A stretch of 41,449 nucleotides of DNA, taken from NCBI GenBank assembly GCA_020847755.1, contig JADLBK010000046.1, positions 1 to 41,449 of the forward strand. The letters are read 5' to 3'. Shown piece after piece: positions 10,347 through 41,449 of this stretch; within the stretch, counting starts at the first letter, position 1, and every line of letters starts with the position of its first letter. The translations under genes were made by a program, and so were the position numbers. Source of the DNA: Flavobacteriales bacterium. Its GTDB lineage: Bacteria > Bacteroidota > Bacteroidia > Flavobacteriales_F > PHOS-HE28. The notes under the pieces were generated by a model that did no database searches, was not told where the DNA came from, and saw only the letters and a list, made by a program, of their open reading frames with translations.

Positions 10347-10808
10347 ATGAGCACGAGCACGAAGTCGATCGCCATCGCCGTGATGGCCCTGAGCATGATG
10401 GCCGCCTGCGGAGGCGGCGGTACGGATGCCGCCAGCGCAGGACCGCCGGGCGCACCCACGCTGGAGAAGGAGACCGGAGGCTCCAAGGCCAAGTTGCTGA
10501 CGGAAGCCGATGTGACCCTGGGTGACATCGACAACGGCATGGCGGAGAAGGGCAAGACGACCTACGATGTCAAGTGCCAGGCCTGCCACAGCATGGGCGA
10601 GAACCGGGTGGTGGGACCAGGCTGGAAGGGCATCACCACCCGGCGCAAACCGGAATGGATCATGAACATGATCCTGAACGTCGACGTGATGCTTGCCGAG
10701 GATGCCGAGGCGCAGAAGCAGTTGGAGCAGTGCCTGGTGCGCATGCCCAACCAGAACCTGAGCATGGAGGAAGCCCGGCAGGTCCTCGAGTTCATGCGCA
10801 CCCTTTGA
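10347..10808 (+). CDS. Lipoprotein monoheme cytochrome c of the nos operon
   Basis: The 153-aa protein has a signal sequence ending in MMAACGGGG (lipidated Cys21), a Gly/Ala/Pro linker, then a class I cytochrome c domain. The heme site is CQACH (Cys77, Cys80, His81), and a downstream Met in RMPNQNLS is the likely sixth ligand. It is the first gene of the nos operon, 26 bp before nosZ. In clade II nos clusters a small cytochrome c at this position is thought to pass electrons to the CuA centre of NosZ; that role is inferred from position. It sits on the outer face of the inner membrane or in the periplasm. Confidence 0.88.
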   Translation: MSTSTKSIAIAVMALSMMAACGGGGTDAASAGPPGAPTLEKETGGSKAKLLTEADVTLGDIDNGMAEKGKTTYDVKCQACHSMGENRVVGPGWKGITTRRKPEWIMNMILNVDVMLAEDAEAQKQLEQCLVRMPNQNLSMEEARQVLEFMRTL

Positions 10809-10834
10809 TCGATCACCCACCACAACCCGTCCCC

Positions 10835-12829
10835 ATGAAACGTCCCTTGTTGTTCACCACAGGAACGATGGCCCTCGCCGGGCTCGCCTTCGTTCTGGTC
10901 AATTCCCTGCCCGGCTGCCGCCCGTCGACCACGCAGACCGTGGTCACCGGCGATGCGGCCTCCAGGGTCTACGTGAAGCCCGGTACCCACGATGAGTTCT
11001 ACAACATGGTCAGCGGTGGCTTCAGCGGCCAGCTCGCCGTGTACGGCCTTCCCAGCGGTCGCCTTTTGCGTGAAGTGCCCGTGTTCTCCGTGGATCCGGA
11101 GACCGGGTATGGGTACAGCGAGGAGACCAAGGGCATGCTGATGACCAGCCACGGGTTCATCCCCTGGGATGACAGCCACCACCCCGAGCTCTCCCAGACG
11201 AACGGCATACCCGATGGCAAGTGGTGCTTCATCAACGGGAACAACACCCCGCGCATCGCGTTGATCGACATGGGCACGTTCAGGACCCACAGCATCATCG
11301 AGATCCCCAACAGCGCGGGCAACCACAGTTCGCCGTTCACCACGGGCAACAGCGAATACGTGGTGGCCGGGACCCGGTTCAGCGTGCCCATGGGGGACGA
11401 TGCCCAGCGCGATGTGCCCATCAGTTCCTACAAGGAGACGTTCAAGGGCACCGTCAGCTTCATCCATCCTGAGCCCGAGACCGGCAAGATGAGCATCGCC
11501 TTCCAGATCGTGACCCCCGCGGTGGACTTCGACCTGAGCCACGCGGGCAAGGGACCGAGCGAGGGCTGGTTCTTCTTCAGCTGCTACAACACCGAACAGG
11601 CCTACAGCCTGCTGGAGGTGAACGCCAGCCAGCGCGACAAGGACTTCATCATGGCCGTGAACTGGAAGATGGCCGAACAGCTGGCCAAGGAGGGCAAGGG
11701 CAAGCGTGTGCCCGGCAGGCACTACAGCAACTGGTGGAACGACAAGACGCACAGCAGTGAGACCACGGTGGTCGAGGACGTGCTCCAGCTGGACCCCAAG
11801 GAGCACCCGGGTCTGCTCTACTTCATGCCCTGCCCGAAGAGCCCGCATGGCTGTGACGTGGACCCCACCGGCAAGTACATCGTAGGCAGCGGCAAGCTGG
11901 CCGCGCTGATCCCGGTGTTCAGCTTCGAGAAGATGCAGAAGGCCATCGCCGCGAACGAGCTGGAGGGCGACTTCGCCGGCATCCCGGTGCTGAAGTATGA
12001 GAGCGTGCTGCATGGCGAGGTGAAGAAGCCCGGTCTGGGGCCCCTGCACACCGAGTTCGATGCCAACGGCAATGCCTACACCAGCTTCTTCGTCAGCAGC
12101 GAGATCGTGAAGTGGAACGTGGAGAAGTTGGAGGTGCTGGACCGTGTGCCCACCTACTACAGCATCGGTCATCTCTGCGTGCCCGGCGGCGACAGCAAGC
12201 AGCCGTGGGGCAAGTACGTGATCGCCTACAACAAGATCACCAAGGACCGCTACCTGCCCACGGGCCCCGAGCTCACGCAGAGCGCGCAGTTGTACAGCAT
12301 CGACGGCGACAAGATGGAGCTGCTCCTCGACTTCCCCACCACGGGCGAGCCGCACTACGCGCAGGCCATCCCGGCCGACCTGGTGAAGCCGCGCGAGGTG
12401 AAGTTCTTCAAGATCGAGGAGAACCAGCACCCTTATGTCGCCAAAGGCGAGAAGGAGGCCCGGGTGGAGCGCAAGGGCAACGAGGTGCACGTGTGGATGA
12501 CCAGCATCCGCTCGCACTTCGCGCCGGACAACATCGAGGGTGTGAAGCTTGGCGATGAGGTCTACTTCCACGTGACGAACCTGGAGCAGGATTGGGACGT
12601 GCCGCACGGCTTCGCCATCAAGGGTGCCGCCAATGCCGAGCTGCTGATCATGCCCGGGGAGACCCAGACCCTCAAGTGGGTGCCGACACGCGTGGGCGTA
12701 TGGCCGATGTACTGCACGGACTTCTGCTCGGCGCTCCACCAGGAGATGCAGGGCTACGTGCGCGTGTCGCCGGCCAACAGCAATGTGCCCTTGAAGGGCG
12801 AGACGGTCTCGGTGGACGCCGGGGTCTGA
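10835..12829 (+). CDS. nosZ: Nitrous oxide reductase, clade II (Sec-type)
   Basis: NosZ reduces N2O to N2 in the periplasm using the CuZ and CuA copper centres. The 664-aa product has a hydrophobic Sec signal (no twin-Arg) ending near LPGC (Cys28, a weak lipobox), which marks the atypical clade II. The N-terminal beta-propeller contains CuZ-type histidines, for example SHGFIPWDDSHHPELS and SAGNHSSPF, and HTEFDANGNAYTS. The C-terminal cupredoxin domain has the CuA motif CTDFCSALHQEM (Cys627, Cys631, His635, Met638). All expected ligands I can place are present, so the enzyme looks functional. It is followed by NosB-like, nosL, nosD, nosF and nosY genes that serve copper loading and assembly. 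Confidence 0.98.
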   Translation: MKRPLLFTTGTMALAGLAFVLVNSLPGCRPSTTQTVVTGDAASRVYVKPGTHDEFYNMVSGGFSGQLAVYGLPSGRLLREVPVFSVDPETGYGYSEETKGMLMTSHGFIPWDDSHHPELSQTNGIPDGKWCFINGNNTPRIALIDMGTFRTHSIIEIPNSAGNHSSPFTTGNSEYVVAGTRFSVPMGDDAQRDVPISSYKETFKGTVSFIHPEPETGKMSIAFQIVTPAVDFDLSHAGKGPSEGWFFFSCYNTEQAYSLLEVNASQRDKDFIMAVNWKMAEQLAKEGKGKRVPGRHYSNWWNDKTHSSETTVVEDVLQLDPKEHPGLLYFMPCPKSPHGCDVDPTGKYIVGSGKLAALIPVFSFEKMQKAIAANELEGDFAGIPVLKYESVLHGEVKKPGLGPLHTEFDANGNAYTSFFVSSEIVKWNVEKLEVLDRVPTYYSIGHLCVPGGDSKQPWGKYVIAYNKITKDRYLPTGPELTQSAQLYSIDGDKMELLLDFPTTGEPHYAQAIPADLVKPREVKFFKIEENQHPYVAKGEKEARVERKGNEVHVWMTSIRSHFAPDNIEGVKLGDEVYFHVTNLEQDWDVPHGFAIKGAANAELLIMPGETQTLKWVPTRVGVWPMYCTDFCSALHQEMQGYVRVSPANSNVPLKGETVSVDAGV

Positions 12830-12840
12830 TCCGGAACGCC

Positions 12841-13503
12841 ATGACGAGCGCCACCCTTCCACCGCCGAACGACGCGGCCTCCGGGAGGGTGGCGCCGTCA
12901 TTATCGCCACGCCCCATGCGCCTGCATCCCCTGTCCCGCGTGCTGCTGGCACTGGCCGCCCTCGCCCTTGCCCTCAACCTGGTGATGCCCATCTGGCGCA
13001 TCGACCTGATGGCACCGCAGTACCCGGAGGGCCTGTTCCTGCAGATCTTCCATGACCGCTTCACCGGGGACATTGACAAGATCAACGGGCTGAACCACTA
13101 CATCGGCATGGCGCACATCAAGGATGAGATGTTCCCCGAGTTCGGCATCATGCGCTATGCCTTCTATCTGCTCATCGCCTGGGGGCTGTTCACCGCCGCG
13201 ATGGGCCGCCGCGGGGTGCTGCTCAGCTGGCTCTTCGCCATCGCCGCCTTCATCATCTGGGCCGTGTGGGACATGTACGTCTGGGGCTACAAATACGGTC
13301 ACGACCTGGACCCGCGTGCGGCGATCAAGGTGGAGGGCATGGCCTACCAGCCTCCGCTCATCGGCCACAAGCAACTGCTCAACTTCGACGCCTGGAGCAC
13401 GCCCGATGTGGGGGGCTGGGCTCTCTTCAGCTGCAGCGCCGTGGCAGCGATCATCTTTGCCGTTGAATGGCGGCGGGCCCATCGCGCGGCACGCAGCGTT
13501 TGA
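12841..13503 (+). CDS. NosB-like membrane protein
   Basis: The 220-aa inner-membrane protein has about four hydrophobic spans (LLALAALALALNLVMPIW; YAFYLLIAWGLFTAAM; LLSWLFAIAAFIIWAVW; WALFSCSAVAAIIFAV). Its position directly after clade II nosZ matches the uncharacterised membrane gene called nosB in other clade II clusters; homology to NosB itself is assumed from position and topology. Conserved-looking His and Asp residues occur in HDRFTGDIDKINGLNHYIGMAHI, a loop or periplasmic segment that could bind metal. The start at 12841 is 11 bp after nosZ; an internal ATG at 12916 would remove a Pro-rich N-terminal tail and is an alternative. Confidence 0.7.
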   Translation: MTSATLPPPNDAASGRVAPSLSPRPMRLHPLSRVLLALAALALALNLVMPIWRIDLMAPQYPEGLFLQIFHDRFTGDIDKINGLNHYIGMAHIKDEMFPEFGIMRYAFYLLIAWGLFTAAMGRRGVLLSWLFAIAAFIIWAVWDMYVWGYKYGHDLDPRAAIKVEGMAYQPPLIGHKQLLNFDAWSTPDVGGWALFSCSAVAAIIFAVEWRRAHRAARSV

Positions 13504-13507
13504 ACCC

Positions 13508-13939
13508 ATGCGATCGACAGCGTCACTCGTTCTGCTCCTGCTCGCCGGCTGCGCTCCGGAGAGCCCCACGATCGACCTGGGTCGGGTGGAGTGCGCCCAC
13601 TGCCGCATGAACGTGGTGGACGCGCGCTTCGCCGCAGCGCTGATCACCAAGGCCGGTCGCCAGTACAGCTTTGATGGACCGGAGTGCATGCTGCCGCATG
13701 TGGCCGAAGGGACGATCGCCGAAGCCCAGGTGAAGGCCTGGTACGTGAGCGACTTCGTGCGCCCCGGCCGGTTGATCGAGGCCACCACCGCCCAATACGC
13801 GCTGGGCGACTCCTATCGCAGTCCCATGCGCGGTGATGTGGCCGCCTTCGCCACCGCGGCCGAACGTGATTCGGCCATCGCATCCTCGGGCGGCGAGCCG
13901 TTGACCTGGGACGCGGTCCGGCAACGCCTGGCCGAGTGA
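13508..13939 (+). CDS. nosL: NosL-like copper chaperone lipoprotein
   Basis: The 143-aa lipoprotein has a lipobox LLAGC (Cys15). The mature protein carries the NosL-type Cu(I)-binding motif CAHCRM (Cys29, Cys32, Met34), then the ISQ-like core QYSFDGPECMLPH and a later YVSDFVRPGRLIEATTAQY segment typical of NosL. NosL delivers copper to apo-NosZ, acting with the NosDFY transporter. It starts 4 bp after the NosB-like gene and its stop overlaps the next gene's GTG/ATG region, which indicates a tight operon. Length is slightly short but normal for Bacteroidota. Confidence 0.93.
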   Translation: MRSTASLVLLLLAGCAPESPTIDLGRVECAHCRMNVVDARFAAALITKAGRQYSFDGPECMLPHVAEGTIAEAQVKAWYVSDFVRPGRLIEATTAQYALGDSYRSPMRGDVAAFATAAERDSAIASSGGEPLTWDAVRQRLAE

Positions 13940-13944
13940 AGTCC

Positions 13945-15174
13945 ATGATCCAACGCACCGCACTTCTTCTGCTCCTAGTACTGTTGTCCTGGCCGGCCTT
14001 GGCGCGTGTGCATCTGCTCCATGGGGGCCAGGGCAGCCTGGCCGCCGTCATCGCCCGTACCGCCCCCGGCGACACCATCGTCGTGGATGGTGTGGTGCGT
14101 GAAGGTCCGGTCACCATCGATCGACCGCTATGCCTGCTCGGCCTGCCGGGAGCGGAGATCGATGGGGGAGGGGTGGGTGATGTGCTGGTGATCACGGCGC
14201 CGGACGTCACGGTCCAGGGCTTCACCTTCCGGGGTGCGCGGTTCAGCAACCTGTATGACAATGCCGCTGTCAAAGTGAACGGCGCGGAACGGCCCGTGAT
14301 CAGGGCCAACCGCTTCATCGGCTGCTTCTTCGCCATCTACCTCAGCGGCGTGCGGGGCGCCGTGGTGGAGGGCAACTCGGTCGAGGGTCTGCCGGAGGAC
14401 AAGGACCGCATGGGCAACGGCATCCACCTGTGGAAGTGCGGCCAGGCCACCATCCGGCGCAATCTCGTCCGCGATCACCGCGACGGCATCTACTTCGAAT
14501 TCGTCACCGACTCGCGCATCGAGGACAACCTCACGCATGGCAATGTGCGCTACGGACTGCACTTCATGTTCAGCCACCGCGACATCTATGAGCGGAACGT
14601 GTTCGTGGACAACGGGGCAGGCGTGGCGGTGATGTTCAGCCACCACATCGGCATGTACAGGAACCGGTTCCTGCACAACCGCGGGGCAAGCGCCTACGGG
14701 CTGCTCCTGAAGGAGATCAACGATGGCGAGATCACGGGCAACACGTTCACGGACAACACCACGGGCCTGATGGTGGACGGCTGCAACCGCATCAAGGCGG
14801 AAGGCAACACCTTCCGCACCAACGGATGGGCGTTGCGTCTCTTCGCCAACGCCACGGCGTGCACCTTCTCCGGCAACAGCTTCCAGGGCAACACCTTTGA
14901 TGTGAGCACCAACGGCGACCTGAAGCTGAACACCATTGAAGCCAACTACTGGGACCGGCACATCGGCTATGATCTGGACCGCGACGGACATGGCGACGTG
15001 CCCCATCGTCCGGTCGGTTTCTTCGCTCTGCTGGTGGAGCGGGTGCCCTATGCGATCGTGTTCTCGCGCAGCCTGTTCGTGGCGCTGCTGGACCGCGCCG
15101 AGCGAGTGCTGCCCACGCTCTCCCCTGCCGACCTGAAGGATGATCATCCCCTGATGCGCCCGCCCCATGGATAG
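13945..15174 (+). CDS. nosD: NosD periplasmic copper-assembly protein
   Basis: This roughly 409-aa protein has a signal peptide (MIQRTALLLLLVLLSWPALA) and a long right-handed beta-helix built from carbohydrate-binding/sugar-hydrolase-type repeats, seen as recurring units such as NRFIGCFFAIYLSG, NLVRDHRDGIYFEF and NTFTDNTTGLMVDG. NosD binds the NosFY ABC complex and takes part in CuZ maturation. A GTG at 13936 in the same frame would overlap the nosL stop (GTGA) and add three residues; I chose the ATG at 13945 because it gives the cleaner signal peptide. The 3' end overlaps nosF by 8 bp. Confidence 0.95.
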   Translation: MIQRTALLLLLVLLSWPALARVHLLHGGQGSLAAVIARTAPGDTIVVDGVVREGPVTIDRPLCLLGLPGAEIDGGGVGDVLVITAPDVTVQGFTFRGARFSNLYDNAAVKVNGAERPVIRANRFIGCFFAIYLSGVRGAVVEGNSVEGLPEDKDRMGNGIHLWKCGQATIRRNLVRDHRDGIYFEFVTDSRIEDNLTHGNVRYGLHFMFSHRDIYERNVFVDNGAGVAVMFSHHIGMYRNRFLHNRGASAYGLLLKEINDGEITGNTFTDNTTGLMVDGCNRIKAEGNTFRTNGWALRLFANATACTFSGNSFQGNTFDVSTNGDLKLNTIEANYWDRHIGYDLDRDGHGDVPHRPVGFFALLVERVPYAIVFSRSLFVALLDRAERVLPTLSPADLKDDHPLMRPPHG

Positions 15175-15883
15175 CATCATCTTCAGCGGTGTGGGCAAGC
15201 GCTACCGGTCGCTGTGGGCGCTGCGTGACGTGGACGCCACGTTCCGCCGGGGCGAGGTGGTGATGGTCATCGGCCCCAACGGTTCGGGCAAGACCACGCT
15301 CATCAAGTGCCTGCTCGGCCTGGTGCGCCCCACCACCGGCAGCATCCAGGTGGAGGGCCAGGTCATCGGACCGGACCCCGGTTATCGGCGATCCATCGGC
15401 TCTATGCCCCAGCTCTCGCAGTTCCCGCCATCGCTCACCATCGGCCAGCTCCTCGAGATGATGCGCGATGTACGCGGTTTAACCCCGGCGTCCGCGGATG
15501 ACGGGCTGGTGGAGGAACTTGGCCTCGCACACCAACTGGACAAACGCCTGGGCGCACTTTCCGGCGGCACCAGGCAGAAGGTGAGCGCCGTGCTGGCCTT
15601 CCGCTCGCGGCCGCGCATCCTGGTGATGGACGAGCCCACCGCCGGGCTCGATCCGGTGAGCGCGCGCACCGTGCTGGACCGCGCGGCCGCGCTGCGTTCC
15701 GAAGGCGGGACGGTCCTCATCACCTCGCACCTCCTGGAGGAGGTCGAGGCCCTGGCGGACCGCATCGCCTACCTGCAGGAGGGGACCCTGCGATTCCTGC
15801 TTCCCCTGAACGATGTGCTGCAGCGCAGCGGGACCGACCGGCTCGCGCTGGCCCTGCCCAAGCTGTTGGCCGATCCCGTATGA
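15167..15883 (+). CDS. nosF: NosF ABC transporter ATPase
   Basis: The 238-aa cytoplasmic ATPase has Walker A GPNGSGKTTL, Q-loop PQLSQFPPSLT, the signature LSGGTRQKV and Walker B RILVMDEPTAGLDP, followed by an H-loop in LITSHLLEE. With NosY in the membrane and NosD in the periplasm it forms the NosDFY complex that energises CuZ assembly. It overlaps nosD by 8 bp and nosY by 4 bp (ATGA). All catalytic motifs are intact. Confidence 0.96.
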   Translation: MDSIIFSGVGKRYRSLWALRDVDATFRRGEVVMVIGPNGSGKTTLIKCLLGLVRPTTGSIQVEGQVIGPDPGYRRSIGSMPQLSQFPPSLTIGQLLEMMRDVRGLTPASADDGLVEELGLAHQLDKRLGALSGGTRQKVSAVLAFRSRPRILVMDEPTAGLDPVSARTVLDRAAALRSEGGTVLITSHLLEEVEALADRIAYLQEGTLRFLLPLNDVLQRSGTDRLALALPKLLADPV

Positions 15884-16653
15884 TCATGGGCAAGGTGCTC
15901 TACTACACCCTGGTGGACCTGGCGCGCAACCGTTCCGTGGTCGCCTTCGCCGCACTGGTCCTCGCGGTGTCCGAAGGTCTATTCCTGGTGGAAGCCGACC
16001 CGGTGAAGGCCCTCCTCAGCCTCGTTCAGGTGATGCTGGCGCTGGTGCCGCTGGTCTCGCTCATTCTTACGGTGGTGTATACCTACGACACGCACGAGTT
16101 CACGCAACTCCTCGCCGTGCAGCCCATCGGGCGTCGGGCCATCCTTGGTGGGCGCATGGGGGCCATGGCGCTGGCGCTCCTGGTGGCCCTGCTCTTCGGC
16201 CTCGGCCTTCCGCTTACCGTCCACGCGCCGGGAACCACGTCGCTGGTGCTGCTCGTCGCCGTGGTGCTGCTGGCCTGGGTGCACACCGCCCTGGGCACCC
16301 TGATCGCCCTTTTACACCGCGACAAGGCGCGGGGCGTTGGCATCGCCCTGGCCACCTGGGCCGGCTTCGTCCTGGTCTACGATGCCCTGCTGATGGCCTT
16401 GCTCTTCGCGTTCAGCGACCGGCCGATCGAGCCGCTGGTGTTGCCGATCGCGGCCCTCAACCCGATCGACCTGGCCCGCATCGCCATCATGATCCGGGTG
16501 GACCTCGCCGCCATGATGGGCTACAGTGGTGCGGTGTACCAGCACATGCTCGGCTCGGCTCCCGGCATCGCCGTGGCGCTCACCCTCATGTTCGCCTGGA
16601 TCGCATGGCCCACACTGGTGGCCTTCAGGGTCTTCCGGCGCAAGGACCTTTGA
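15880..16653 (+). CDS. nosY: NosY ABC transporter permease
   Basis: The 257-aa inner-membrane protein has about six hydrophobic spans, beginning SVVAFAALVLAVSEGLFLV and ending with IAVALTLMFAWIAWPTLVAF, and the family's signature THEFTQLLAVQPIGRRAILGGR. It pairs with NosF. The start overlaps the nosF stop by 4 bp. Homology, length and context all agree with NosY. Confidence 0.95.
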   Translation: MIMGKVLYYTLVDLARNRSVVAFAALVLAVSEGLFLVEADPVKALLSLVQVMLALVPLVSLILTVVYTYDTHEFTQLLAVQPIGRRAILGGRMGAMALALLVALLFGLGLPLTVHAPGTTSLVLLVAVVLLAWVHTALGTLIALLHRDKARGVGIALATWAGFVLVYDALLMALLFAFSDRPIEPLVLPIAALNPIDLARIAIMIRVDLAAMMGYSGAVYQHMLGSAPGIAVALTLMFAWIAWPTLVAFRVFRRKDL

Positions 16654-20616: not shown

Positions 20617-21606
20617 ATGGACGGCTTGAACCCCAGCGTCCGCCCCGTGGGCCCGGGTGCCAGCGGTGCCGGAGGAGCGAACCCTGCCCTGGTCGCGGAG
20701 ATCCGGGAGTTGAAACGTGCGAAACGTGCCGTGATCCTCGCACACTATTACCAGACGGGTGACATACAGATGCTCGCCGATCATGTCGGTGACAGCCTTG
20801 CGCTCGCACGCGCCGCCGAGCGCACCGACGCACCGGTGATCCTGTTCTGTGGAGTGCACTTCATGGCCGAAACAGCCAAGATCCTGGATCCGGGACGGAA
20901 GGTGTTGCTGCCCGACCGGGCAGCGGGCTGCTCCCTGGCCGATTCCGCCCCGGCCGCGAAGTTCCGCGCTTTCATCGATGCGCATCCCGACCATTTCGTG
21001 GTGAGCTACATCAATTGCAGTGCGGAGGTGAAGGCGATGAGCGACATCATCTGCACCAGCAGCAACGCGGTTCGCGTGGTGAACAGCATTCCGACGGACC
21101 GCCCCATCATCTTCGCTCCCGACCGGCACCTTGGAGCCTATGTGCAGCGCATCACGGGCAGGGAGATGCTCCTCTGGGACGGCACCTGCGAGGTGCACGT
21201 GAACATCAGCATGGACAAACTGAAGCTGCTGATGGGCAGGCATCCCCACGCGAAGCTGGTGGCCCATCCTGAATGTCCGGAGCATATCCTTCTCGAAGAC
21301 GACCATGTGGGCAGCACCAGTTCACTGCTCGGCTTCGTGAAGCACGATCCGGGCAAGGAGTTCATCGTGGCGACCGAGGCCGGCATCTTGTACAACATGA
21401 GGGCCGAGGTGCCGGGCAAGACACTGATACCCGCACCCGCCTTCGCCGACAACGAATGCGCCTGTAGTGAATGTCCGTACATGAAATTGAACACCTTGGA
21501 GAAGGTGCGCGATGCGTTGCTCTTCGAAGAGCCGGCGATCACCCTCGATGAGGAGGTCCGTGTACGGGCCCATCGCGCCCTCCGCCGAATGCTCGAACTG
21601 GGATGA
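20617..21606 (+). CDS. nadA: Quinolinate synthase
   Basis: NadA condenses iminoaspartate with dihydroxyacetone phosphate to quinolinate, using a [4Fe-4S] cluster that is damaged by O2 and NO. The 329-aa protein has ILAHYYQTGDIQMLADHVGDSLALA, VILFCGVHFMAETAKIL, VVSYINCSAEVKA, WDGTCEVH and the C-terminal CACSECPYMKLN; the cluster cysteines are among these (FCGVHFM, the TCEVH segment and the ECPYM segment). The stop overlaps the nadB start by 4 bp (ATGA). About 20 poorly conserved residues precede the core, so the true start might be slightly downstream. Confidence 0.97.
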   Translation: MDGLNPSVRPVGPGASGAGGANPALVAEIRELKRAKRAVILAHYYQTGDIQMLADHVGDSLALARAAERTDAPVILFCGVHFMAETAKILDPGRKVLLPDRAAGCSLADSAPAAKFRAFIDAHPDHFVVSYINCSAEVKAMSDIICTSSNAVRVVNSIPTDRPIIFAPDRHLGAYVQRITGREMLLWDGTCEVHVNISMDKLKLLMGRHPHAKLVAHPECPEHILLEDDHVGSTSSLLGFVKHDPGKEFIVATEAGILYNMRAEVPGKTLIPAPAFADNECACSECPYMKLNTLEKVRDALLFEEPAITLDEEVRVRAHRALRRMLELG

Positions 21607-23189
21607 GCTTGACGCTCGAGGTGCTCGTGGTCGGTGGCGGGATCGCCGGAATGAACTATGCCGTTCAACTCGCGGACAAGGCCGGGGGGCGCAAGCTGCG
21701 GATCCGGATCCTATCGAAAGCGACCGTGCACGAGAGCAGTTCCTTCCATGCTCAGGGTGGTGTCGCGGCCGCGATGTGCGCGGAGGATCCGTTCGAGGAC
21801 CATGTGCGCGACACCCTCGCCGTGGGCGAAGGCCGAAACGATGCCGATGTGGTGCGTCTCGTGGTGAAGGAGGGCCCCGCCGTGATCCGTGGGTTGATCG
21901 GGCTCGGTGCTCACTTCGACAGGGACCGCGGCGGTGCGCTCCACCTGGCGCGTGAGGGTGGTCATCGTGCCGCGCGAGTGGTGCACCATCGCGACCGCAC
22001 GGGCGAGGAGATCGTTCGCGTGCTGCAACAACGCGTCCGTGATATCCCGGTGATCGGGACGGTGATGGATCAACGGGTGATCGAGCTGCTTACCGAGGGT
22101 GAGGGAGCGTACCGGCGCTGCATCGGCGTTCGAGCGGTGGACCTCCGTACCGGCGACGTCGTGGAGCACTTCGCCCACGTGGTGATCCTGGCCACCGGCG
22201 GTGCAGGACGACTGTTCGAGCACACCACGAATCCGGCCGGTGCGACCGGTGATGGCGTCGCGATGGGCATCAGGGCCGGAGCGTTGACGCGTGATATGGC
22301 CTTCGTCCAGTTCCACCCCACGGCCTTGTTCACCGGCGTACCGGGCACGGTCGGCCTGGTCAGTGAAGCGGTCCGTGGTGCGGGCGCACGCCTGATCGGC
22401 ATCACGGGCCGGCCTGTGATGGCCGGCGTTCATCCCATGGGCGATCTGGCCCCGCGGCATATCGTCGCACGCGCCATACACCGGGAGATGGTGCGTACCG
22501 GAGCCCGTTATGTCCATCTGGACGCCGGACCCATCGGCATCGAACGGTTCCGCGCTGAGTTCCCGGGCATCGCAGCGCTTTGCCGTGACACGGGTCTGCT
22601 ACCGGGCCGGGACCTGTTGCCGGTGATGCCGGCAGCCCACTATCTCTGTGGTGGCCTCCGCACCGATAGCCACGGAAGGACTTCCATCCCGGGTCTGTAC
22701 GCCTTGGGCGAATGCGCCTGCAGCGGCCTGCACGGTGCGGACCGCCTGGCATCGAACTCGCTGCTCGAAGCACTGGTGATCCCCAGGCGTGCGGCGGAAA
22801 CCACTTGGGAGACCCGTGCTCCAGCGGCCGCGCCTGCATCACAGGTGATCGCCCGCGACCGCCTGGCCAAACGGCCGGTGGAGATCGTGGGCCGGGCGAC
22901 GGCCGCGCTGACGCACGCCATGACGATGCACGTTGGCATCGTGCGCAAGACCGAGGGGCTGGAGAGCGCCCTGCGCGTGATCAACTGCATCGAGCGGCAA
23001 GTGCTGCCCATCTGGCACCGCCGACGCTGGTCGCCCGCGCTCATGGACCTGCGGGACCTGCTGGTGGTGGCGCGCAGCGTGACGGAAGCCGCGCTTCACG
23101 AGCCCGTGAGCGTGGGTACGCATTTCCTGGAGGAACCTGAGCCCTATGACCGGCCGATGGCGCATATCCCCGGGGGATCCATCAACTAA
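21603..23189 (+). CDS. nadB: L-aspartate oxidase
   Basis: NadB oxidises L-aspartate to iminoaspartate with FAD, passing electrons to O2 or fumarate, and feeds NadA. The 528-aa protein has the N-terminal dinucleotide motif VVGGGIAGMNYA, the SSFHAQGGVAAAM flavin segment, ARVVHHRDRTGEEI, GGAGRLFEHTTNPAGATGDGVAMG and MAFVQFHPTALF, and the C-terminal succinate-dehydrogenase-like helical domain. The usual active-site Arg and His residues are present. It is translationally coupled to nadA. Its stop overlaps that of the convergent nod-like gene by 4 bp. Fumarate use would let NAD synthesis continue without oxygen. Confidence 0.97.
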   Translation: MSLTLEVLVVGGGIAGMNYAVQLADKAGGRKLRIRILSKATVHESSSFHAQGGVAAAMCAEDPFEDHVRDTLAVGEGRNDADVVRLVVKEGPAVIRGLIGLGAHFDRDRGGALHLAREGGHRAARVVHHRDRTGEEIVRVLQQRVRDIPVIGTVMDQRVIELLTEGEGAYRRCIGVRAVDLRTGDVVEHFAHVVILATGGAGRLFEHTTNPAGATGDGVAMGIRAGALTRDMAFVQFHPTALFTGVPGTVGLVSEAVRGAGARLIGITGRPVMAGVHPMGDLAPRHIVARAIHREMVRTGARYVHLDAGPIGIERFRAEFPGIAALCRDTGLLPGRDLLPVMPAAHYLCGGLRTDSHGRTSIPGLYALGECACSGLHGADRLASNSLLEALVIPRRAAETTWETRAPAAAPASQVIARDRLAKRPVEIVGRATAALTHAMTMHVGIVRKTEGLESALRVINCIERQVLPIWHRRRWSPALMDLRDLLVVARSVTEAALHEPVSVGTHFLEEPEPYDRPMAHIPGGSIN

Positions 23190-25519
23190 GGTGTGCGGCC
23201 CGGGATCGGGAGCACTGTGCGGGGCGGTGGGGCGGCCAATGGCGGTCTCACCCTGGCCGACATTCGGACCACCATCCAGGCAATGGGAAGCACACCTCCG
23301 ATGATGAAGAGGGTGGCCCCGATCCCTCGCAGCCAGGTCAGGCCTTCGAACACGGGCCCTGTGATGAACTCCTCGGACCGGGCGAACCACAGGCCCCGGT
23401 CCAGCACGGCGGTCAATTGGACAAGGCCTGCGGGTAGCAGGTCGAGCAGCACCATGAGCATCAGGCCCACGTTCAGTGATCGGAAGGCCCGGCGTACCAG
23501 ACGAGCGTCCCACGCCTCCGGCTCCACCAACAGCTTGCAGCAGAACAACAGACCCGCCAGGGACAAGTTGCCGTACACCCCGAACAGCGCGGCATGGCCG
23601 TGGTTCACGGTGAGGTATGTGCCATGTTCGAAGTAGTTCACGATCGGGAGGTTGATGATCAGTCCGAAAACCCCGGCCCCGAGGAAGTTCCAGAAGTTGA
23701 CGGCCACCAGGAAGAGGAACACCTCGGGTTGCCCGAACTTCCAGGGTGCACCGCGCTCGGTGGCCTTGGACCTTCGCATGCGATCGAACCGCCAGGCCTC
23801 CACGGTGAGCAGGATCAGCGGCACCACCTGCAGGGTCGAGAACACGCTGCCCAGGGCCATGGTGCCCACCGGTTTCGCATTCCAGTAGAAGTTGTGGGAG
23901 ATGCCCAACAGCCCTGAACCGAGAAAGAGCAGGGTGGCCAGGTAGATCACCCGTTCTGCGGCCTTCGCCCCCACGAGCCCCATCCGCACCATCATATACC
24001 CCACCACGATCGTGGTGAACACTTCGAAGAAGGCCTCCACCCACATGTGGATCACGGCCCAGCGCCAGAGATCCGCGATGACGAAGTTGGTGCGCGGCGT
24101 GGCAACGAATCCTGACAGGAGCAGCACGCTGATGCATACCGTGGAATAGACCAGCCAGTTCGGCAATGCCCACGGTCTGCCTTTGCGGAACGCAGGTCTG
24201 CATCCCTGATAGAGGATCACCGCCCAAAGGATGAGGATCGCGAGCAAAAGGGCCTGGAACACCCGGCCGAACTCCATGAACTCCCATCCCTGGTGACCGA
24301 ACAGCGACCACTGAGCACCCAGCAGCCCGATGGGTCCGGCGTAAGTGCCGAACAGGGTGCCCGCCACGAGCAGAACGATCATGGCGAAGAGCGTGTTGGT
24401 CATGCGGAGCGATCGCTGGGACTCCTGGCCACTGATCATGGGGATCAGGAAGATGGAGACCCCGATCCAGCAGCAGCTGATCCAGAACAGGGCGAGCGAG
24501 AGGTGCCAGCTTCGGGCCACCACCAGGGGGAGCAGCGCCGAGATGTCGATACCCAGCAGCCCCAGGTGATCGGTGAAGGCGCTGATGGTGATGACCCCGC
24601 TGAGGACCTGGACCACAAGAACGAGCGCTGCGGCAACGAAGAATTTGAAGGTGGCCCGCTGAAGGGGCGTGGGCCGGAAGAGGCTGACCTGCCCGGCGCT
24701 CATGCCTTCACCCGAGCCTGCGGTGAACTGTTCATCCTTGAGCCCGTCGAACTGGCCGTACATGTACAGAACCACCCCCAGACCGAGGATGAAGCCCAGG
24801 ATACCGATGACGCTCCACCACATCACCGGACTCGTGGGCAGATTGCCGGCCTCATCATCATAAGGCCAGTTGTGCGTATAGCTGAAGCTCTCGCCGGGGC
24901 GCTGTGCTCCGCACACCCACCCACCCCAGAAGAAGAAGTCGCTCAGGTCGCGCACCTCATCCTCATCGCTGATGAAGCCAGGGGGAGGGAAGGAGCCCTC
25001 TTCCGCGGCACCACCGAACCGTTCCGCCGTGTGTTCCCGAAGTCTGATGACCGCGGTCCTCTGGGCCTCGTTGAGCCTCACAGTGCCACGCTCGGGGTCA
25101 AAGGCGGAGGCCTTCAACTCGCGTTTGACGCGTTCGGCGATCGCGAGCACCAGGGTGGTGTCGTCGATCGTTCGGCCTCTGGACCCCGGATCGGAACGGT
25201 AGTGCTCCCTCATGTACGACGCCGTAAGGTGCAGGGCTTCCGCGGTGAAGTCCGGGCCTCGGCCGGCTCCATCGCCGAACATGCTGCCATACTCCATCAA
25301 GGCGTACTTCAGGAACACCTCCTGGCCGTCCAGGATGTCTTCTCCTCTGATGATCACACGACCATCCGGACCTTCCATATCCACGATCGGGGGCGCATCC
25401 GAATAGGCCTGTTGAGCGATCCAGCCGACACCCGTGATGCTCACCAGGAAGATGAGCAGCAACGGCTTCCACCAGTTCCGCGGGTCCATCAACCAACGTA
25501 GGGCAGCCCGGTCGCTCAT
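23186..25519 (-). CDS. nod: Putative NO dismutase (Nod), diverged quinol-NO-reductase family
   Basis: The 777-aa protein has the qNor layout: a first span, a periplasmic cytochrome-c-like domain, then about 13 spans homologous to NorB. FeB-ligand candidates His491 and Glu495 (HMWVEAFFEVF) and His542 are present, but the second His of the usual HH pair is Asn543 (GISHNFYWNAKP). The Glu 21 residues on (E581 in Geobacillus numbering) is Gln564 (SVFSTLQVVP). The quinone-site AHYxVEGxxF motif is replaced by ISAFTDHLGLL, and the PGD-type Asp near the C-terminus by IGAT. Loss of the quinone site plus H-to-N is the pattern reported for putative NO dismutases (2 NO to N2 plus O2) in Methylomirabilis, strain HdN1 and Muricauda. 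Activity is inferred; a defective or altered qNor is the alternative. An ATG at 25558 adds 13 residues. Confidence 0.8.
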   Translation of the reverse strand: MSDRAALRWLMDPRNWWKPLLLIFLVSITGVGWIAQQAYSDAPPIVDMEGPDGRVIIRGEDILDGQEVFLKYALMEYGSMFGDGAGRGPDFTAEALHLTASYMREHYRSDPGSRGRTIDDTTLVLAIAERVKRELKASAFDPERGTVRLNEAQRTAVIRLREHTAERFGGAAEEGSFPPPGFISDEDEVRDLSDFFFWGGWVCGAQRPGESFSYTHNWPYDDEAGNLPTSPVMWWSVIGILGFILGLGVVLYMYGQFDGLKDEQFTAGSGEGMSAGQVSLFRPTPLQRATFKFFVAAALVLVVQVLSGVITISAFTDHLGLLGIDISALLPLVVARSWHLSLALFWISCCWIGVSIFLIPMISGQESQRSLRMTNTLFAMIVLLVAGTLFGTYAGPIGLLGAQWSLFGHQGWEFMEFGRVFQALLLAILILWAVILYQGCRPAFRKGRPWALPNWLVYSTVCISVLLLSGFVATPRTNFVIADLWRWAVIHMWVEAFFEVFTTIVVGYMMVRMGLVGAKAAERVIYLATLLFLGSGLLGISHNFYWNAKPVGTMALGSVFSTLQVVPLILLTVEAWRFDRMRRSKATERGAPWKFGQPEVFLFLVAVNFWNFLGAGVFGLIINLPIVNYFEHGTYLTVNHGHAALFGVYGNLSLAGLLFCCKLLVEPEAWDARLVRRAFRSLNVGLMLMVLLDLLPAGLVQLTAVLDRGLWFARSEEFITGPVFEGLTWLRGIGATLFIIGGVLPIAWMVVRMSARVRPPLAAPPPRTVLPIPGRTP

Positions 25520-25559
25520 CGTTTGTGCGCTCGGACGACCACAGGGCCGGGGGAACATT

Positions 25560-25873: not shown

Positions 25874-29108
<3,235 letters not shown>

Positions 29109-37037: not shown

Positions 37038-37472
37038 TCAGGCGTACACGGCGGTGCGACCGCCATGCACCTGGTCGATGCGATCGAGCTCTTCGGCCGT
37101 GGCCCGCTCCTGCACCTGCGGGAACAGTACGCGCTCCTCGAAGCGGATGTGCGCCTCCAGTGCGTCCTCGATCCGGCTGAGCGTGCGCGTCGGATCATCC
37201 GTTGTCAGGAAGAGACGTGCGATGCGGCGGTGTTCGGCGATGGCGCGACGCACCAGCGGATCCCCTGCACCGAGCACGGGGAATACGGCTTCCTCTTCCA
37301 CGGCGAAGTGCGGAAGCAGCTCGCGCTCGAAGACCGTGCGGCACTCGGCCAGCATCTGGTCATGATCGCGGCGTCCCACCAGGTCGCGGCGGATCCGCCA
37401 GCACAACAGCAGGCCGTGGTGGTGCTCGCGGCTCAGGGGCCGCAACTGCGGGTGGCGTTCAAGCGGTGGCAT
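37038..37472 (-). CDS. Hemerythrin-like di-iron protein
   Basis: The 144-aa protein matches the HHE cation-binding/hemerythrin family. It has REHHHGLLLCWRIRRD, HFAVEEEAVFPVL, AEHRRIARLF and AHIRFEERVLFPQ, four helices supplying the His and Glu ligands of a di-iron site. Such proteins bind O2 or NO, or take part in Fe-S repair. It overlaps the end of ric by 14 bp and precedes the kinase by 57 bp, so it is probably in the same operon as ric. Confidence 0.88.
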   Translation of the reverse strand: MPPLERHPQLRPLSREHHHGLLLCWRIRRDLVGRRDHDQMLAECRTVFERELLPHFAVEEEAVFPVLGAGDPLVRRAIAEHRRIARLFLTTDDPTRTLSRIEDALEAHIRFEERVLFPQVQERATAEELDRIDQVHGGRTAVYA

Positions 37473-38199
37473 GGCGCAACTCCGCCTCCAGGGCCAAGGC
37501 CTTCGGGAAGAGGATGTTGTTCTCCAGGTGGATGTGGCGGTGGAGGTCCTCCTCGAACTCGCGCAGCATGGCGTAGGCGGTGCCGTAGGTGGTGCAGCCG
37601 TCGGGCGGGTTGGTGTAGTTGCCGCTCAGTTCGGCGATGCGGCGGAAGCGCTCACCCTCGGCGTCGTGCTCGTGCTCCATCATGGCGTTGGGGTTTTCCA
37701 CGGTGCCGAAATGCGGGGTGGGGGCGGGCAGGTCGTGCAGCCTGGCCTTCTCCAGCTGGTTGATGAAGGGGAAGAGGACCAGCTCCTCCTTCTTCATGTG
37801 GGCGGCCATGGCCTGCACGCAGGCCTGGAACTCCTCCCGGATGGTGAAGAGCTCCGGGTGGCGGTCGCCATGCACGGTGCAGAGCTTGTTGAGGAACTGC
37901 ATCAGGGTGATGGAGCGGGCCTCCACATAGCGGTGATGCACGCGTTCGATGTGCTCGATCAGGCGGCTCAGGGGCCACTGCTTCACATCATCGCCCGTGC
38001 CGCCATCGCGTTCGATGGCTTGGCGGATCTCAATCTCCAAGGTGCCCGGATCAATGCCCTTGGCCCGGCAGACCTCGGCAATTGAACGGCCGCCCTTGCA
38101 GCAGAAGTCGATGCCGTGGGCGTTGAAGACGGCGGCGGTGCGGTAGTCATCGGCCACGATGGAGCCGACGGTGCGCTCGGGGGAGAAGGGGATGGACAT
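37459..38199 (-). CDS. ric: Iron-sulfur cluster repair di-iron protein (Ric/ScdA/YtfE)
   Basis: Ric repairs Fe-S clusters damaged by NO or oxidants using a di-iron site. The 246-aa protein has the N-terminal ScdA domain with HGIDFCCKGGRS (Cys33, Cys34), then a hemerythrin-like four-helix domain with HIERVHHRYVEA, HMKKEELVLFPF, MEHEHDAEG and LHRHIHLENNILFP, which supply His and Glu ligands. Length is standard. A variant of the shared palindrome lies 36 bp upstream, in the promoter. It is the first gene of ric-hemerythrin, and perhaps of the kinase and regulator too. Confidence 0.95.
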   Translation of the reverse strand: MSIPFSPERTVGSIVADDYRTAAVFNAHGIDFCCKGGRSIAEVCRAKGIDPGTLEIEIRQAIERDGGTGDDVKQWPLSRLIEHIERVHHRYVEARSITLMQFLNKLCTVHGDRHPELFTIREEFQACVQAMAAHMKKEELVLFPFINQLEKARLHDLPAPTPHFGTVENPNAMMEHEHDAEGERFRRIAELSGNYTNPPDGCTTYGTAYAMLREFEEDLHRHIHLENNILFPKALALEAELRHATA

Positions 38200-38235
38200 G
38201 GTGTACTGGTGCTCTCAGGTGCGATGCAAATAAAA

Positions 38236-38249
38236 GGACAAAAAGGTCC
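38236..38249. promoter_or_regulatory. Palindrome variant (NO/redox regulon site) upstream of ric
   Basis: GGACAAAAAGGTCC keeps the GGAC/GTCC arms of the regulon palindrome with a different centre (11 of 14 matches to GGACAAATTTGTCC). It is 36 bp upstream of the ric ATG. On the minus strand a TTTATTTG (7/8 to TAnnTTTG) follows it, so a bound repressor would cover the promoter spacer. Confidence 0.5.
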
Positions 38250-38257
38250 AAAAATGA

Positions 38258-38271
38258 ATGACGAACGTCAT
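38258..38271. promoter_or_regulatory. Inverted repeat at the stop of the small membrane-protein gene
   Basis: ATGACG-AA-CGTCAT is a perfect 14-bp dyad that includes the TGA stop of the upstream gene, 9 bp from the ric palindrome. It could be a second operator for ric; the two-base spacer is too short for a stable RNA loop. Confidence 0.35.
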
Positions 38272-38714
38272 CCTTGCCCGGTGGTGACACGGCTCAGCCG
38301 GGTGCCGAGAATGATCAACGCCGCCACCTTCACCACCTCGCCGGTCACGTACAGGAGATGCAGATGCGATGGGCTTGGTGGGTGGCCATGGATGGCCAGC
38401 AGCGCGCGTTCGTCGAGGGCCGGCAGCAGCCACAGGCTTTGAACGATGAGGATGAGCACGGGCAGCACCATGAGCCCGCGGGGAGGCCAGGCCACCCTGC
38501 GCCACAGCAGGTCGGCGAGCAAGGCCACGGCCAGCGCCCATTCCACACGGTTCAAGGCCTGGAACACGAGCCGTCCGATGCCAAGACCGATCGGCAGGGT
38601 GACACCGTGCGCACGGAACTTCAGCCACGCCTCCATGAAGCTGATGGCGCACACGAAGCCCACCCAGACGAAGGCGCAGATGAGCGCGATGGGGTGGTGC
38701 AGCCGGTAGCTCAC
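38268..38714 (-). CDS. Small four-span membrane protein of unknown function
   Basis: The 148-aa inner-membrane protein has four spans (ALICAFVWVGFVCAISFME, VEWALAVALLADLLW, GLMVLPVLILIVQSLWLL, GEVVKVAALIILGT). Histidines sit at the start (MSYRLHHPIAL) and in the last loop (HGHPPSPSHLHLLY), as might ligate heme or a metal. It overlaps the truncated-hemoglobin stop by 4 bp and is thus in the cbb3/hemoglobin operon. I cannot assign a family with confidence; DUF4149-like topology was considered. Confidence 0.65.
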   Translation of the reverse strand: MSYRLHHPIALICAFVWVGFVCAISFMEAWLKFRAHGVTLPIGLGIGRLVFQALNRVEWALAVALLADLLWRRVAWPPRGLMVLPVLILIVQSLWLLPALDERALLAIHGHPPSPSHLHLLYVTGEVVKVAALIILGTRLSRVTTGQG

Positions 38715-39112
38715 TGGATGAAGTCCTGCGAGCGTGTCCGGTAGCGCTCAATGCGCTCTTGGAACATGTCGGCCATGCGCAGCGCATTGCGCTTGGCGAG
38801 GTCGGCCACGGGCCCTTCGAACAGGTCGTCCACCGTGGCCAGGAAGAGCGTGAGCCAGCGTTGGAAGTGCGCGGCACCGATGGGCATGTGCAGATGGGGC
38901 CGCAACGGGGTGCCCGTGTACGACCCCTCGTTGATCAGCACGGTGCCCCAGAAGCGATGCATCTTCTCCAGGTGCTCGGGCCAGCGATCGCCGATGATGC
39001 CGTTGAAGATGCCGCCCAGCAGCTCGTCGTTGCGGACCCTGCCGTAGAAGGAGTCCACCAGGAGCACGATGTGGTCGTGGTGCTGGATGTCCGTGCGCGG
39101 TGCGGACCTCAT
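38711..39112 (-). CDS. Group III truncated hemoglobin
   Basis: The 133-aa protein matches group III (trHbP) globins: DIQHHDHIVLLVDSFYGRVRNDELLGGIFN at the N-terminus, then HRFWGTVLIN and HMPIGAAHFQRWLTLFLATVDD with the proximal-heme His, ending FQERIERYRT. Group III globins are linked to NO handling or O2 delivery to terminal oxidases at low O2. The gene sits between a cbb3 oxidase cluster and ric, which fits both roles. ATG 39112 gives the family start and overlaps the upstream stop by 4 bp. Confidence 0.9.
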   Translation of the reverse strand: MRSAPRTDIQHHDHIVLLVDSFYGRVRNDELLGGIFNGIIGDRWPEHLEKMHRFWGTVLINEGSYTGTPLRPHLHMPIGAAHFQRWLTLFLATVDDLFEGPVADLAKRNALRMADMFQERIERYRTRSQDFIQ

Positions 39113-39522
39113 GCTGCGGGCGGCACGTGCCAGTATTGGATGAAGTAGAACAGGGCGAAGCCGAGGAAGGTGATGAGCAGGGCCCATACCCAGGCGGGTA
39201 TGCCCTTGGGCGTTTCCGAACCGGTGACCAGGAAGCGGTCGGCGCGCTCGCTGCCATAGGCGTTGATGGTGATGGGCATGCGGCCGTCCACCACGTCGCC
39301 ATCATCGAGGCCCACCACGGCGATGTCCGGACCGTTGCGCACCTCGAAGGGCACCGTGCGCACGCCCTCCACACCGCTGGTGGAGCGCGCCACAACACGC
39401 AGGGTGTGCGGCCCATCGGGCAGGCGGGTGGTGTCCAGCACGAACTTCACCGGCGGCTCGAACTCGGCAAAGGGCTCGCGGTCGTCATCGATGTAGAGGC
39501 GGACCAGGCGTTCAGGTTCCAT
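39109..39522 (-). CDS. Ig-like domain protein with C-terminal membrane anchor
   Basis: The 137-aa protein has an extracytoplasmic-looking beta-sandwich (VKFVLDTTRLPDGPHTLRVVARS..., then VVDGRMPITINAYG) and a single C-terminal span (IPAWVWALLITFLGFALFYFIQYW). There is no N-terminal signal, so it may insert by its C-terminal anchor. It overlaps the neighbouring genes on both sides in the cbb3 cluster and is probably an accessory subunit of the oxidase or of its assembly. The family is not identified. Confidence 0.65.
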   Translation of the reverse strand: MEPERLVRLYIDDDREPFAEFEPPVKFVLDTTRLPDGPHTLRVVARSTSGVEGVRTVPFEVRNGPDIAVVGLDDGDVVDGRMPITINAYGSERADRFLVTGSETPKGIPAWVWALLITFLGFALFYFIQYWHVPPAA

Positions 39523-39787
39523 GGGGAATGGATGGGTCGTGGAGGATGATGTGCTTGATGTGGCCGGCGTGCCTTTCCCCCGGCCTCAGCAGCATGCGCA
39601 GGGCAAGGACCAGGGTGATGCCGACGATGATCCCCGCGCTCCACACGATGACGAGGTCCCATTGGCCCTGCGGTCCCGTACCGTGCGTGATGCCGCGCAG
39701 TGGAGCAGGCTGGTTCTTCTGGCACACATCGCAGGCCCATGCGGCCGCACTGACCGCGCTGAACAGAAGGGTGATCAGCGTGCGCAT
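39512..39787 (-). CDS. Small secreted/membrane protein with CxxC motif
   Basis: The 91-aa protein has a signal peptide ending near AAAWA, then ACDVCQKNQP, a CxxC that could bind copper, heme or a disulfide, followed by a single span (WDLVIVWSAGIIVGITLVLAL) and a His-rich tail (HAGHIKHIILH). It shares one base with the upstream cytochrome stop and overlaps the next gene by 11 bp, so it belongs to the oxidase operon. A copper-delivery or assembly role is a guess. Confidence 0.65.
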   Translation of the reverse strand: MRTLITLLFSAVSAAAWACDVCQKNQPAPLRGITHGTGPQGQWDLVIVWSAGIIVGITLVLALRMLLRPGERHAGHIKHIILHDPSIPHGT

Positions 39788-40800: not shown

Positions 40801-40804
40801 GGCG

Positions 40805-41449
40805 TCAGGCGATGGTGGGGGCTGCTGCGGTTGCTGTGTTCACCGCAGGACGGCGTACCATGGTGATGAAGTTCCAGGCGAAGAGGAGGTGGGAGACGAA
40901 CATCAGCGAGCCACCGATGGCCCGCCAGATCCAGTAGGGCCGTGAGCCGATCACCCCATCGATAAAGGGCCGTCCCTCCAGCCATTGCAGCCCTTTGAAG
41001 GTGCCGCCGGCCATCATGCTGATCATGTAGGCGAGGAGGCCGATGAAGGCCAGCCAGAAGTGTGCGCCCACCAGCAGTTGTGCCGGTTCCCTCCCCGTGA
41101 GCCGTGGCAGGATGGCGTACAGGCAGGCCCACAGCGCGAAGGTGATGATGCCATACATGGTCATATGCGAGTGCGCCACGTTGAAGTCCGTGAAGTGCCA
41201 GAGGTGGTTGGTGAAGCGGAAGGCCTGGAAGCTGCCCTGCGTGCTGCCCACGAAGTAGAAGACCACGGCCACCAGGAAGAAGGGCAGCACGTAGCTGCGG
41301 CCGATGGCCGACCAGCTGCCGCGCATGGTCATCAGGAAGTTGGTGGTGCCCGCCACCACGGGGATGAACATGCCCGCGCTGAACACGATGGCCACCGTCT
41401 GCAGCCACCAGGGCAGGGGCGCGAAGACGAAGTGGTGCGTGCCGATCAG
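40805..41449 (-). CDS. ccoN: cbb3-type cytochrome c oxidase subunit I, C-terminal part (cut by window edge)
   Basis: About 214 C-terminal residues remain. The paired CuB histidines and the following loop read GTHHFVFAPLPWWLQT, then HLWHFTDFNVAHSHMTMYG carries the heme ligands, and PRLTGREPAQLLVGAHFWLAF and PYWIWRAIGGSLMFVSHLLFAWN follow. The match to CcoN is close. CcoN reduces O2 to water with high affinity. The start lies beyond 41449. The diheme cytochrome gene follows after 4 bp. Confidence 0.95.
   Translation of the reverse strand: MIGTHHFVFAPLPWWLQTVAIVFSAGMFIPVVAGTTNFLMTMRGSWSAIGRSYVLPFFLVAVVFYFVGSTQGSFQAFRFTNHLWHFTDFNVAHSHMTMYGIITFALWACLYAILPRLTGREPAQLLVGAHFWLAFIGLLAYMISMMAGGTFKGLQWLEGRPFIDGVIGSRPYWIWRAIGGSLMFVSHLLFAWNFITMVRRPAVNTATAAAPTIA

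What the first reader, a model, noticed from the sequence alone, without database searches (positions are those of the whole stretch)
23186..25519. Quinol-NO-reductase homologue with NO-dismutase residue signature
The HH pair that binds FeB is His542-Asn543 (GISHNFYWNAKP), the Glu 21 residues later is Gln564, the AHYxVEG quinone motif is absent, and the C-terminal quinone Asp is replaced. His491, Glu495 and the Asn/Gln positions keep the exact spacing of Geobacillus qNor (508, 512, 560, 581). These changes match what is reported for putative NO dismutases. The gene may therefore produce O2 from NO in a Bacteroidota member that also has NosZ and a cbb3 oxidase.
Basis: partly seen in the sequence, partly recalled or inferred. 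Interest (0 to 1): 0.93.

Follow-up and report, generated by a model that had tools for sequence, protein, structure and literature searches.

The report
Bacteroidota NO dismutase-family gene (nod)
This bacterial genome carries an intact gene of the putative nitric oxide dismutase family, enzymes predicted to split nitric oxide into nitrogen and oxygen gas; it belongs to a branch already known in this phylum, and searches of its genome, which is 83% complete, detected no nitric-oxide-making nitrite reductase.

Summary
The gene (23186-25519, minus; ORF open to 25558) encodes a qNOR-fold protein in which one FeB histidine is Asn (N556 = Geobacillus 560), the active-site Glu is Gln (Q577 = 581) and the quinol residues are replaced. 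Of 295 aligned family rows (window included), 295 have Asn560 and 294 Gln581; 21 of 21 qNORs have His/Glu. In a tree without the signature columns it lies in a Bacteroidota clade with Muricauda, apart from qNORs (split 100, clade 98 SH-aLRT). The family assignment stands but is not new: Muricauda is in the founding 2012 paper. O2 formation is unproven for any purified enzyme of the family. New here: nod sits at one site (nadB | orf681) in 5 of 45 genomes of the genus (35 searched directly), and that site is empty in the 12 congeners examined; no NirK over cut-off and no NirS in the five carriers; of 55 distinct nod genomes, 9 have a clear Nir hit and 49 have NosZ; nine residues besides Asn556, among them Lys562, are fixed in 295 of 295 rows and at most 1 of 21 qNORs. 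Nir scarcity argues against self-contained oxygenic denitrification; frequent NosZ (no baseline measured) also fits an N2O-producing rival.

The parts
23186..25519 (-). nod-family gene, 777 aa from Met14; the ORF is open upstream to an ATG at 25558 (790 aa, the numbering used here)
   Evidence: Pfam COX1 156.7 bits and NorB_cytochrome_c-like 142.5 bits; the four congener copies start at the same Met
23891..23896 (-). His555-Asn556: FeB ligand pair; Asn replaces qNOR His560
   Evidence: Asn in 295 of 295 rows, His in 21 of 21 qNORs
23828..23830 (-). Gln577, replaces qNOR Glu581
   Evidence: Gln in 294 of 295 rows, His in one; Glu in 21 of 21 qNORs
24035..24049 (-). His504 and Glu508 (qNOR His508 and Glu512), kept
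24557..24583 (-). Degraded quinol site: Ser326, Asp330, Leu334 for qNOR His328, Glu332, Phe336
23315..23317 (-). Ala748, replaces the quinol-binding Asp746 of qNOR
   Evidence: Asp in 21 of 21 qNORs
23873..23875 (-). Lys562, fixed in the NOD-type rows and absent from the qNOR rows
   Evidence: Lys in 295 of 295 NOD-type rows, in 0 of 21 qNORs
21603..23189 (+). nadB, left flank of the nod site (its stop overlaps the end of nod by 4 bases)
   Evidence: Pfam FAD_binding_2; adjacent to orf681 in 12 fetched congeners without nod
25874..27700 (+). orf681, unknown family, right flank of the nod site (start codon uncertain; the ORF opens at 25655)
   Evidence: no Pfam or NCBIfam match; synteny
10347..16653 (+). 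nos cluster: cytochrome c, clade II NosZ (10574-12829), NosL, NosD, ABC ATPase, ABC-2 membrane protein
37459..41449 (-). Putative consumer of O2 and NO-stress genes: ScdA/YtfE-type repair protein, marginal globin, CcoO/CcoP-like protein, CcoN-like C-terminal part

Best explanation
The gene encodes a membrane protein of the putative NO dismutase branch of the quinol NO reductase family, and it likely turns two NO into N2 and O2 without outside electrons. Shown: the qNOR-like sequence and predicted fold, five of the six haem/FeB histidines (H352, H504, H555, H653, H655), Asn and Gln in place of the sixth histidine and of the active-site glutamate, replaced quinol-binding residues, no CXXCH motif, purifying selection. 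Inferred: haem b, haem b3 and a non-haem metal are bound; two NO meet at the b3/metal site; without a quinol site and with Gln for Glu the usual two electrons and protons are not supplied, so N-O bonds are rearranged to N2 and O2; the O2 would be used by the nearby cbb3-type oxidase or other oxygen-using enzymes. Because no NirK over the cut-off and no NirS was found in the carriers, the NO would come mostly from neighbouring cells or side reactions, so the role is likely scavenging of NO with O2 as a gain rather than a complete oxygenic denitrification.
Against: No activity was measured here, and the family's chemistry is unproven in print (PMC13386854). NosZ occurs in 50 of 56 nod-bearing genome handles (49 of 55 distinct), which a direct N2 producer does not need and which would also fit an N2O-producing enzyme; no baseline for NosZ in Bacteroidota was measured. 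No NirK over the cut-off and no NirS in the five carriers. Relatives in clade A keep His at quinol position 328 in 31 of 120 rows, so loss of quinol binding is less clear-cut across the clade than the Asp746 change. The active-site stretch itself is the less certain part of the model (pLDDT blocks 61 and 68 for residues 551-570). The sequences from Methylomirabilis and strain HdN1 were not obtained, so the tree does not contain them.
Confidence: 0.6

Rival explanations
1. It is an altered NO reductase: it still makes N2O from NO, taking electrons by a route other than the classical quinol site, and NosZ of the same cell removes the N2O. The role is NO detoxification.
For: NosZ in 50 of 56 nod genome handles and in 43 of 45 genomes of the genus; ScdA/YtfE-type repair protein and a marginal globin in the same window; no NirK over cut-off and no NirS in carriers, so likely outside NO; regulators of NO response near other nod genes were taken to suggest detoxification (PMC13386854 section 21); His328 kept in 31 of 120 clade-A rows.
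Against: Glu581 is Gln in 294 of 295 rows and FeB His560 is Asn in 295 of 295; Asp746 is absent in the 240 clade A and B rows counted; no CXXCH in this protein; two separate clades keep the same substitutions. NosZ is near-universal in the genus whether or not nod is present, so it says little there.
Confidence: 0.27
2. It binds NO but does neither reaction at a useful rate: an NO sensor, buffer or an enzyme of another substrate.
For: The chemistry of the family is unmeasured on purified enzyme (PMC13386854); the gene is dispensable, found in 4 of 34 congeners.
Against: Residues expected to hold both haems and most of the metal site are fixed across 295 rows and dN/dS is about 0.2, as for an enzyme.
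Confidence: 0.12
3. It is an ordinary qNOR misread by the reader, or a decayed gene.
For: Same fold and length as qNOR.
Against: Signature, tree and selection.
Confidence: 0.01

Closest known systems
Putative NO dismutase of Muricauda (Bacteroidota), Nod family of Ettwig et al. 2012
   Same: Same clade (Muricauda sp. M10 and CP2A, L030 and L032, about 56% identity), same His-Asn, Gln and Ala for Asp746
   Different: Another lineage; quinol-site letters differ (window Ser/Asp/Leu, Muricauda Asn/Asp/Phe). M. ruestringensis itself was not in the tree, two other Muricauda were
Bacteroidota NOD clade reported from Sediminibacterium, Algoriphagus and lake MAGs (PMC10264387, PMC13386854)
   Same: Phylum, residue signature; Algoriphagus rows L044, L050 lie in clade A
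   Different: Their trees were not re-run here; the nadB | orf681 site was examined only in this genus
Methylomirabilis oxyfera DAMO_2434/2437 and strain HdN1 Nod
   Same: The published residue definition is met
   Different: Sequences not obtained, so identity and position were not measured; their hosts oxidise methane or alkanes (PMC3413370, passages)
Quinol NO reductase (Geobacillus 3ayf)
   Same: Fold, cytochrome c-like domain without haem c, most ligands; 33% identity
   Different: His560, Glu581, His328, Glu332, Phe336, Asp746 are replaced in the window protein

Membership tests
Putative NO dismutase (Nod) | qNOR fold with N-terminal cytochrome c-like domain without haem c | tested here: met
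Putative NO dismutase (Nod) | One FeB histidine (560) replaced by asparagine | tested here: met
   N556, codon 23891-23893 AAC
Putative NO dismutase (Nod) | Glutamate 581 replaced by glutamine | tested here: met
   Q577
Putative NO dismutase (Nod) | Other histidines of the haem/FeB set kept | tested here: met
   H352, H504, H555, H653, H655
Putative NO dismutase (Nod) | Quinol-site residues His328, Glu332, Phe336, Asp746 replaced | tested here: met
   S326, D330, L334, A748
Putative NO dismutase (Nod) | Clusters with other Nods apart from qNORs | tested here: met
   Split 100, clade A 98 SH-aLRT, with two Muricauda rows; quick tree without bootstrap
Putative NO dismutase (Nod) | Clusters with the sequences of Methylomirabilis and HdN1 | not tested
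   Those sequences were not among the listed results
Putative NO dismutase (Nod) | Makes N2 and O2 from NO | not testable with these tools
   Needs enzyme assay
Quinol-dependent NO reductase (qNOR) | FeB His-His pair 559/560 and Glu581 | tested here: not met
   His-Asn and Gln; 21 of 21 qNORs have His-His and Glu
Quinol-dependent NO reductase (qNOR) | Quinol-binding His328 and Asp746 | tested here: not met
   Ser and Ala
Oxygenic denitrifier (organism that makes NO itself and dismutates it) | NO-forming nitrite reductase NirK or NirS in the genome | tested here: not met
   Own genome (83% complete): two TIGR02376 matches far below the cut-off (31 bits against 296), no Cytochrom_D1 match; likewise nothing over cut-off in G019, G024, G026 (97-99% complete) and G027 (82%)

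The most novel reading that the evidence does not exclude
Bacteroidota NODs serve non-denitrifying N2O reducers as oxygen scavenging from other cells' denitrification: cells without any nitrite reductase take NO leaked by neighbours, make O2 from it for their own oxidase and oxygenases, and swap the nod gene in and out of one fixed chromosomal site as local NO supply changes.
Probability: 0.3. Interest if true: 0.75.

Novelty: new member of a known kind. Interest (0 to 1): 0.42.

Why it matters
If the family really dismutates NO, O2 is made in the dark in many anoxic habitats and N2O is bypassed. The open question is biochemical proof and physiological role. This genus offers a useful comparison: close relatives with and without nod at one site, and carriers in which no NirK over cut-off, NirS, cNOR or qNOR was detected. 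One complication: the four congener carriers also hold a second, unusual COX1-family protein that is weakly NorB-like; it is not on the window contig.

Tried and rejected
Ordinary qNOR: rejected by residues and tree. Pseudogene: rejected by open frame and dN/dS. Anti-correlation of nod and nirK in the genus: 0 of 5 carriers against 8 of 40 others, Fisher p 0.57, so not claimed. FNR/CRP-like or Bacteroidetes -33/-7 sites in 260 bases upstream of nod in the window and four carriers: none found by simple patterns. Relics of nod in the 12 empty sites: none beyond short chance matches (best E 0.36). NCBIfam has no model that matches the protein. Methylomirabilis and HdN1 sequences: not among the listed results. 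A viral-contig hit (L082) encodes a clade-B-like protein without residues about 433-606; set aside. Distances between Lys562 and the metal site could not be measured because model coordinates were not in the Python box.

Rows dropped before counts: P0002 (the window itself) from the relatives; L001, L107, L118, L123, L124 and fragments under 600 aa from the locus rows; 101 of 349 aligned rows went into the tree. The 87 locus rows contain duplicates of protein rows and of each other. Handles G222 and G492 are taken as one genome (identical NosZ coordinates), so 56 handles are 55 genomes. The NirK count used E up to 1e-40, so weaker matches are not in it.
Full report
What is there. Pfam finds COX1 and the NorB cytochrome c-like domain; no NCBIfam model matches. 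The best solved structure by sequence is Geobacillus qNOR 3ayf (513.7 bits).

How special is the signature. The first protein search gave 1488 proteins at E up to 1e-20, of which the best 120 were listed; one of these is the window. A second clade was reached through a tandem neighbour in one of the loci, the second protein of L022 (1023 proteins, 120 listed), and a third search with an alignment of that clade added 55 more (1446 proteins, 120 listed). All rows below come from these capped lists. Among 295 rows (window, 119 of clade A, 120 and 55 of clade B) Asn560 is present in 295, Gln581 in 294 (the exception, P0115, has His) and His559 in 295. In 120 clade-A and 120 clade-B rows no Asp746 is left. 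In 21 qNORs (two solved ones, six from plasmid records, 13 from genomes found) 21 have His560, Glu581, His328 and Asp746. His328 is kept in 31 of 120 clade-A rows, which weakens the quinol argument for that part of the clade.

Tree. With eleven signature columns removed, 101 rows (of 349 aligned) were placed by IQ-TREE, quick search, SH-aLRT only. NOD-type rows and qNORs separate with 100; clade A has 98, clade B 100. The window pairs with P0003 (95) inside a set of 14 rows (100) that holds the four congener sequences; Muricauda, Algoriphagus, Hydrotalea, Flavihumibacter and several Saprospiraceae MAGs are in clade A. Several long qNOR branches carry warnings; they lie on the outgroup side. 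Methylomirabilis and HdN1 sequences are missing from the tree. Two proteins at 69-70% identity to a clade-B member are named nitric oxide dismutase by JGI, and the Thr328/Arg332 letters that PMC10286720 (passages) reports for NC10 and aquifer nod clusters are common in clade B (Thr in 49, Arg in 69 of 120).

Positions that separate the two groups. Sixteen alignment positions are at least 98% fixed in 295 NOD-type rows and carry the same letter in at most 10% of 21 qNOR rows. Besides Asn556, nine are fixed in 295 of 295: Asp96, Phe328, Trp468, Phe557, Lys562 and Asn664 (0 of 21 qNORs) and Met505, Thr575 and Asn641 (1 of 21 each). Lys562 and Phe557 lie in the segment after the His-Asn pair. Their role is not known; I did not see them discussed in the passages and sections that I read, which is not a statement about all literature.

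Where the gene sits. The genome (G000, 3.67 Mb, 264 contigs, 83% complete) has one copy. In an even sample of 395 genomes of the phylum, four besides this one have a copy at 54-56% identity, while 30 have a 32-40% match; ten of these 30 were examined and have the qNOR residues. Among 34 congeners searched with the protein, 4 have a full-length copy (G019, G024, G026, G027); the 10 further congeners were screened only indirectly, by a cNorB query that did find the five known copies, and showed none. In the five carriers nod lies between nadB and orf681 (in G027 with a tryptophanase-like gene in between), on the opposite strand. Seventeen congeners without nod have both flank genes; I fetched 12 and in these 12 the two genes are neighbours with 80-1461 bases between them and no trace of nod; in the other five they are on different contigs (four) or about 14 kb apart (one). 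The nod sequences of the genus lie in one clade while trees of the flank genes need 2 to 4 changes of nod state: one arrival at the site followed by losses, or exchange through the flanks. dN/dS among the five copies is 0.13-0.29.

Company. In 45 genomes of the genus NosZ is found in 43, NirK over the cut-off in 8, none of them a nod carrier (four of the five carriers have matches of at most 31 bits against a cut-off of 296), and NirS in none except one weak 28.5-bit match in G007. A cNorB query found in the carriers only nod itself and, in G019, a 24% match; elsewhere its best was a partial 33% match in G031. The difference in NirK between carriers and others is not significant (0 of 5 against 8 of 40, p 0.57). 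For 56 nod-bearing genome handles (the first 50 of 80 named loci plus six sampled genomes; 55 distinct) NirK was found in 7 at E up to 1e-40 (5 over the cut-off), NirS at E below 1e-100 in 2, with four further genomes that have short 25-43-bit Cytochrom_D1 matches which pass Pfam's low cut-off, NosZ in 50 handles, 49 genomes. The NirK and strong NirS hits are in different genomes, so 9 of 55 have a clear Nir hit and 46 have none (four of these 46 with the short matches); completeness of the 50 locus genomes is not given. In oxygen-deficient zones others noted that few nir-bearing MAGs also carry nod (PMC10359470, passages). The paper searches were made; I did not see the Nir-free, NosZ-bearing setting of Bacteroidota nod described in what I read, but most subscription papers are not held, among them two that I would most like to have read (the Murali 2024 and Ruff 2024 papers in the reference list of PMC13386854).

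Mechanism. Committed reading: NO dismutation, probability 0.6, with steps beyond sequence and fold inferred. NosZ in most of the nod genomes looked at and a detoxification setting keep an N2O-making rival at 0.27. The Nir result changes the role rather than the chemistry: NO would be taken from outside.

Verdict. What may be worth a specialist's time is the natural with/without comparison at one site and the scarcity of nitrite reductases among carriers.

Noticed in passing
L185:2882-4270, L187:3376-4716 and 15 of 80 nod loci (e.g. L061, L062, L066, L070, L073, L074, L079): A second, unusual COX1-family protein of about 450 aa (weakly NorB-like, 4xyd 43.7 bits) lies near nod or nadA; its first FeB His position is aligned with Tyr or Asn and one of the two C-terminal haem His positions with Met, while the His-His pair is kept. 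It is absent from the window contig; the rest of the genome was not searched with it. Only 43 of the 80 loci have full flanks.
   Followed up: partly
L022:6001-10981: Flavobacteriales MAG Tobar13m-G11 has a tandem of one clade-A and one clade-B nod-type gene (56% and 41% identity to the window).
   Followed up: partly
L082:4001-5521: A viral-collection contig holds a clade-B-like nod gene in one open frame that lacks about 175 residues including the active site.
   Followed up: partly
window 37459-39187 (-): ScdA/YtfE-type iron-sulphur repair protein and a marginal globin next to the cbb3-like genes at the contig end.
   Followed up: partly
L187:7256-7902 and L198:2688-4148: The empty nod site of G033 and of G456 holds a small minus-strand lipoprotein-like ORF; the two share a stretch around F(D/E)RCTMDGE(A/G)HE.
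   Followed up: no
window 25655-27700 (+): orf681: conserved protein of 600-680 aa without Pfam or NCBIfam match, found in 22 of 45 genomes of the genus.
   Followed up: no
L111 (G431): A Bacteroidota qNOR with full His/Glu/Asp signature but 39-40% identity to the window, higher than the other qNORs.
   Followed up: no
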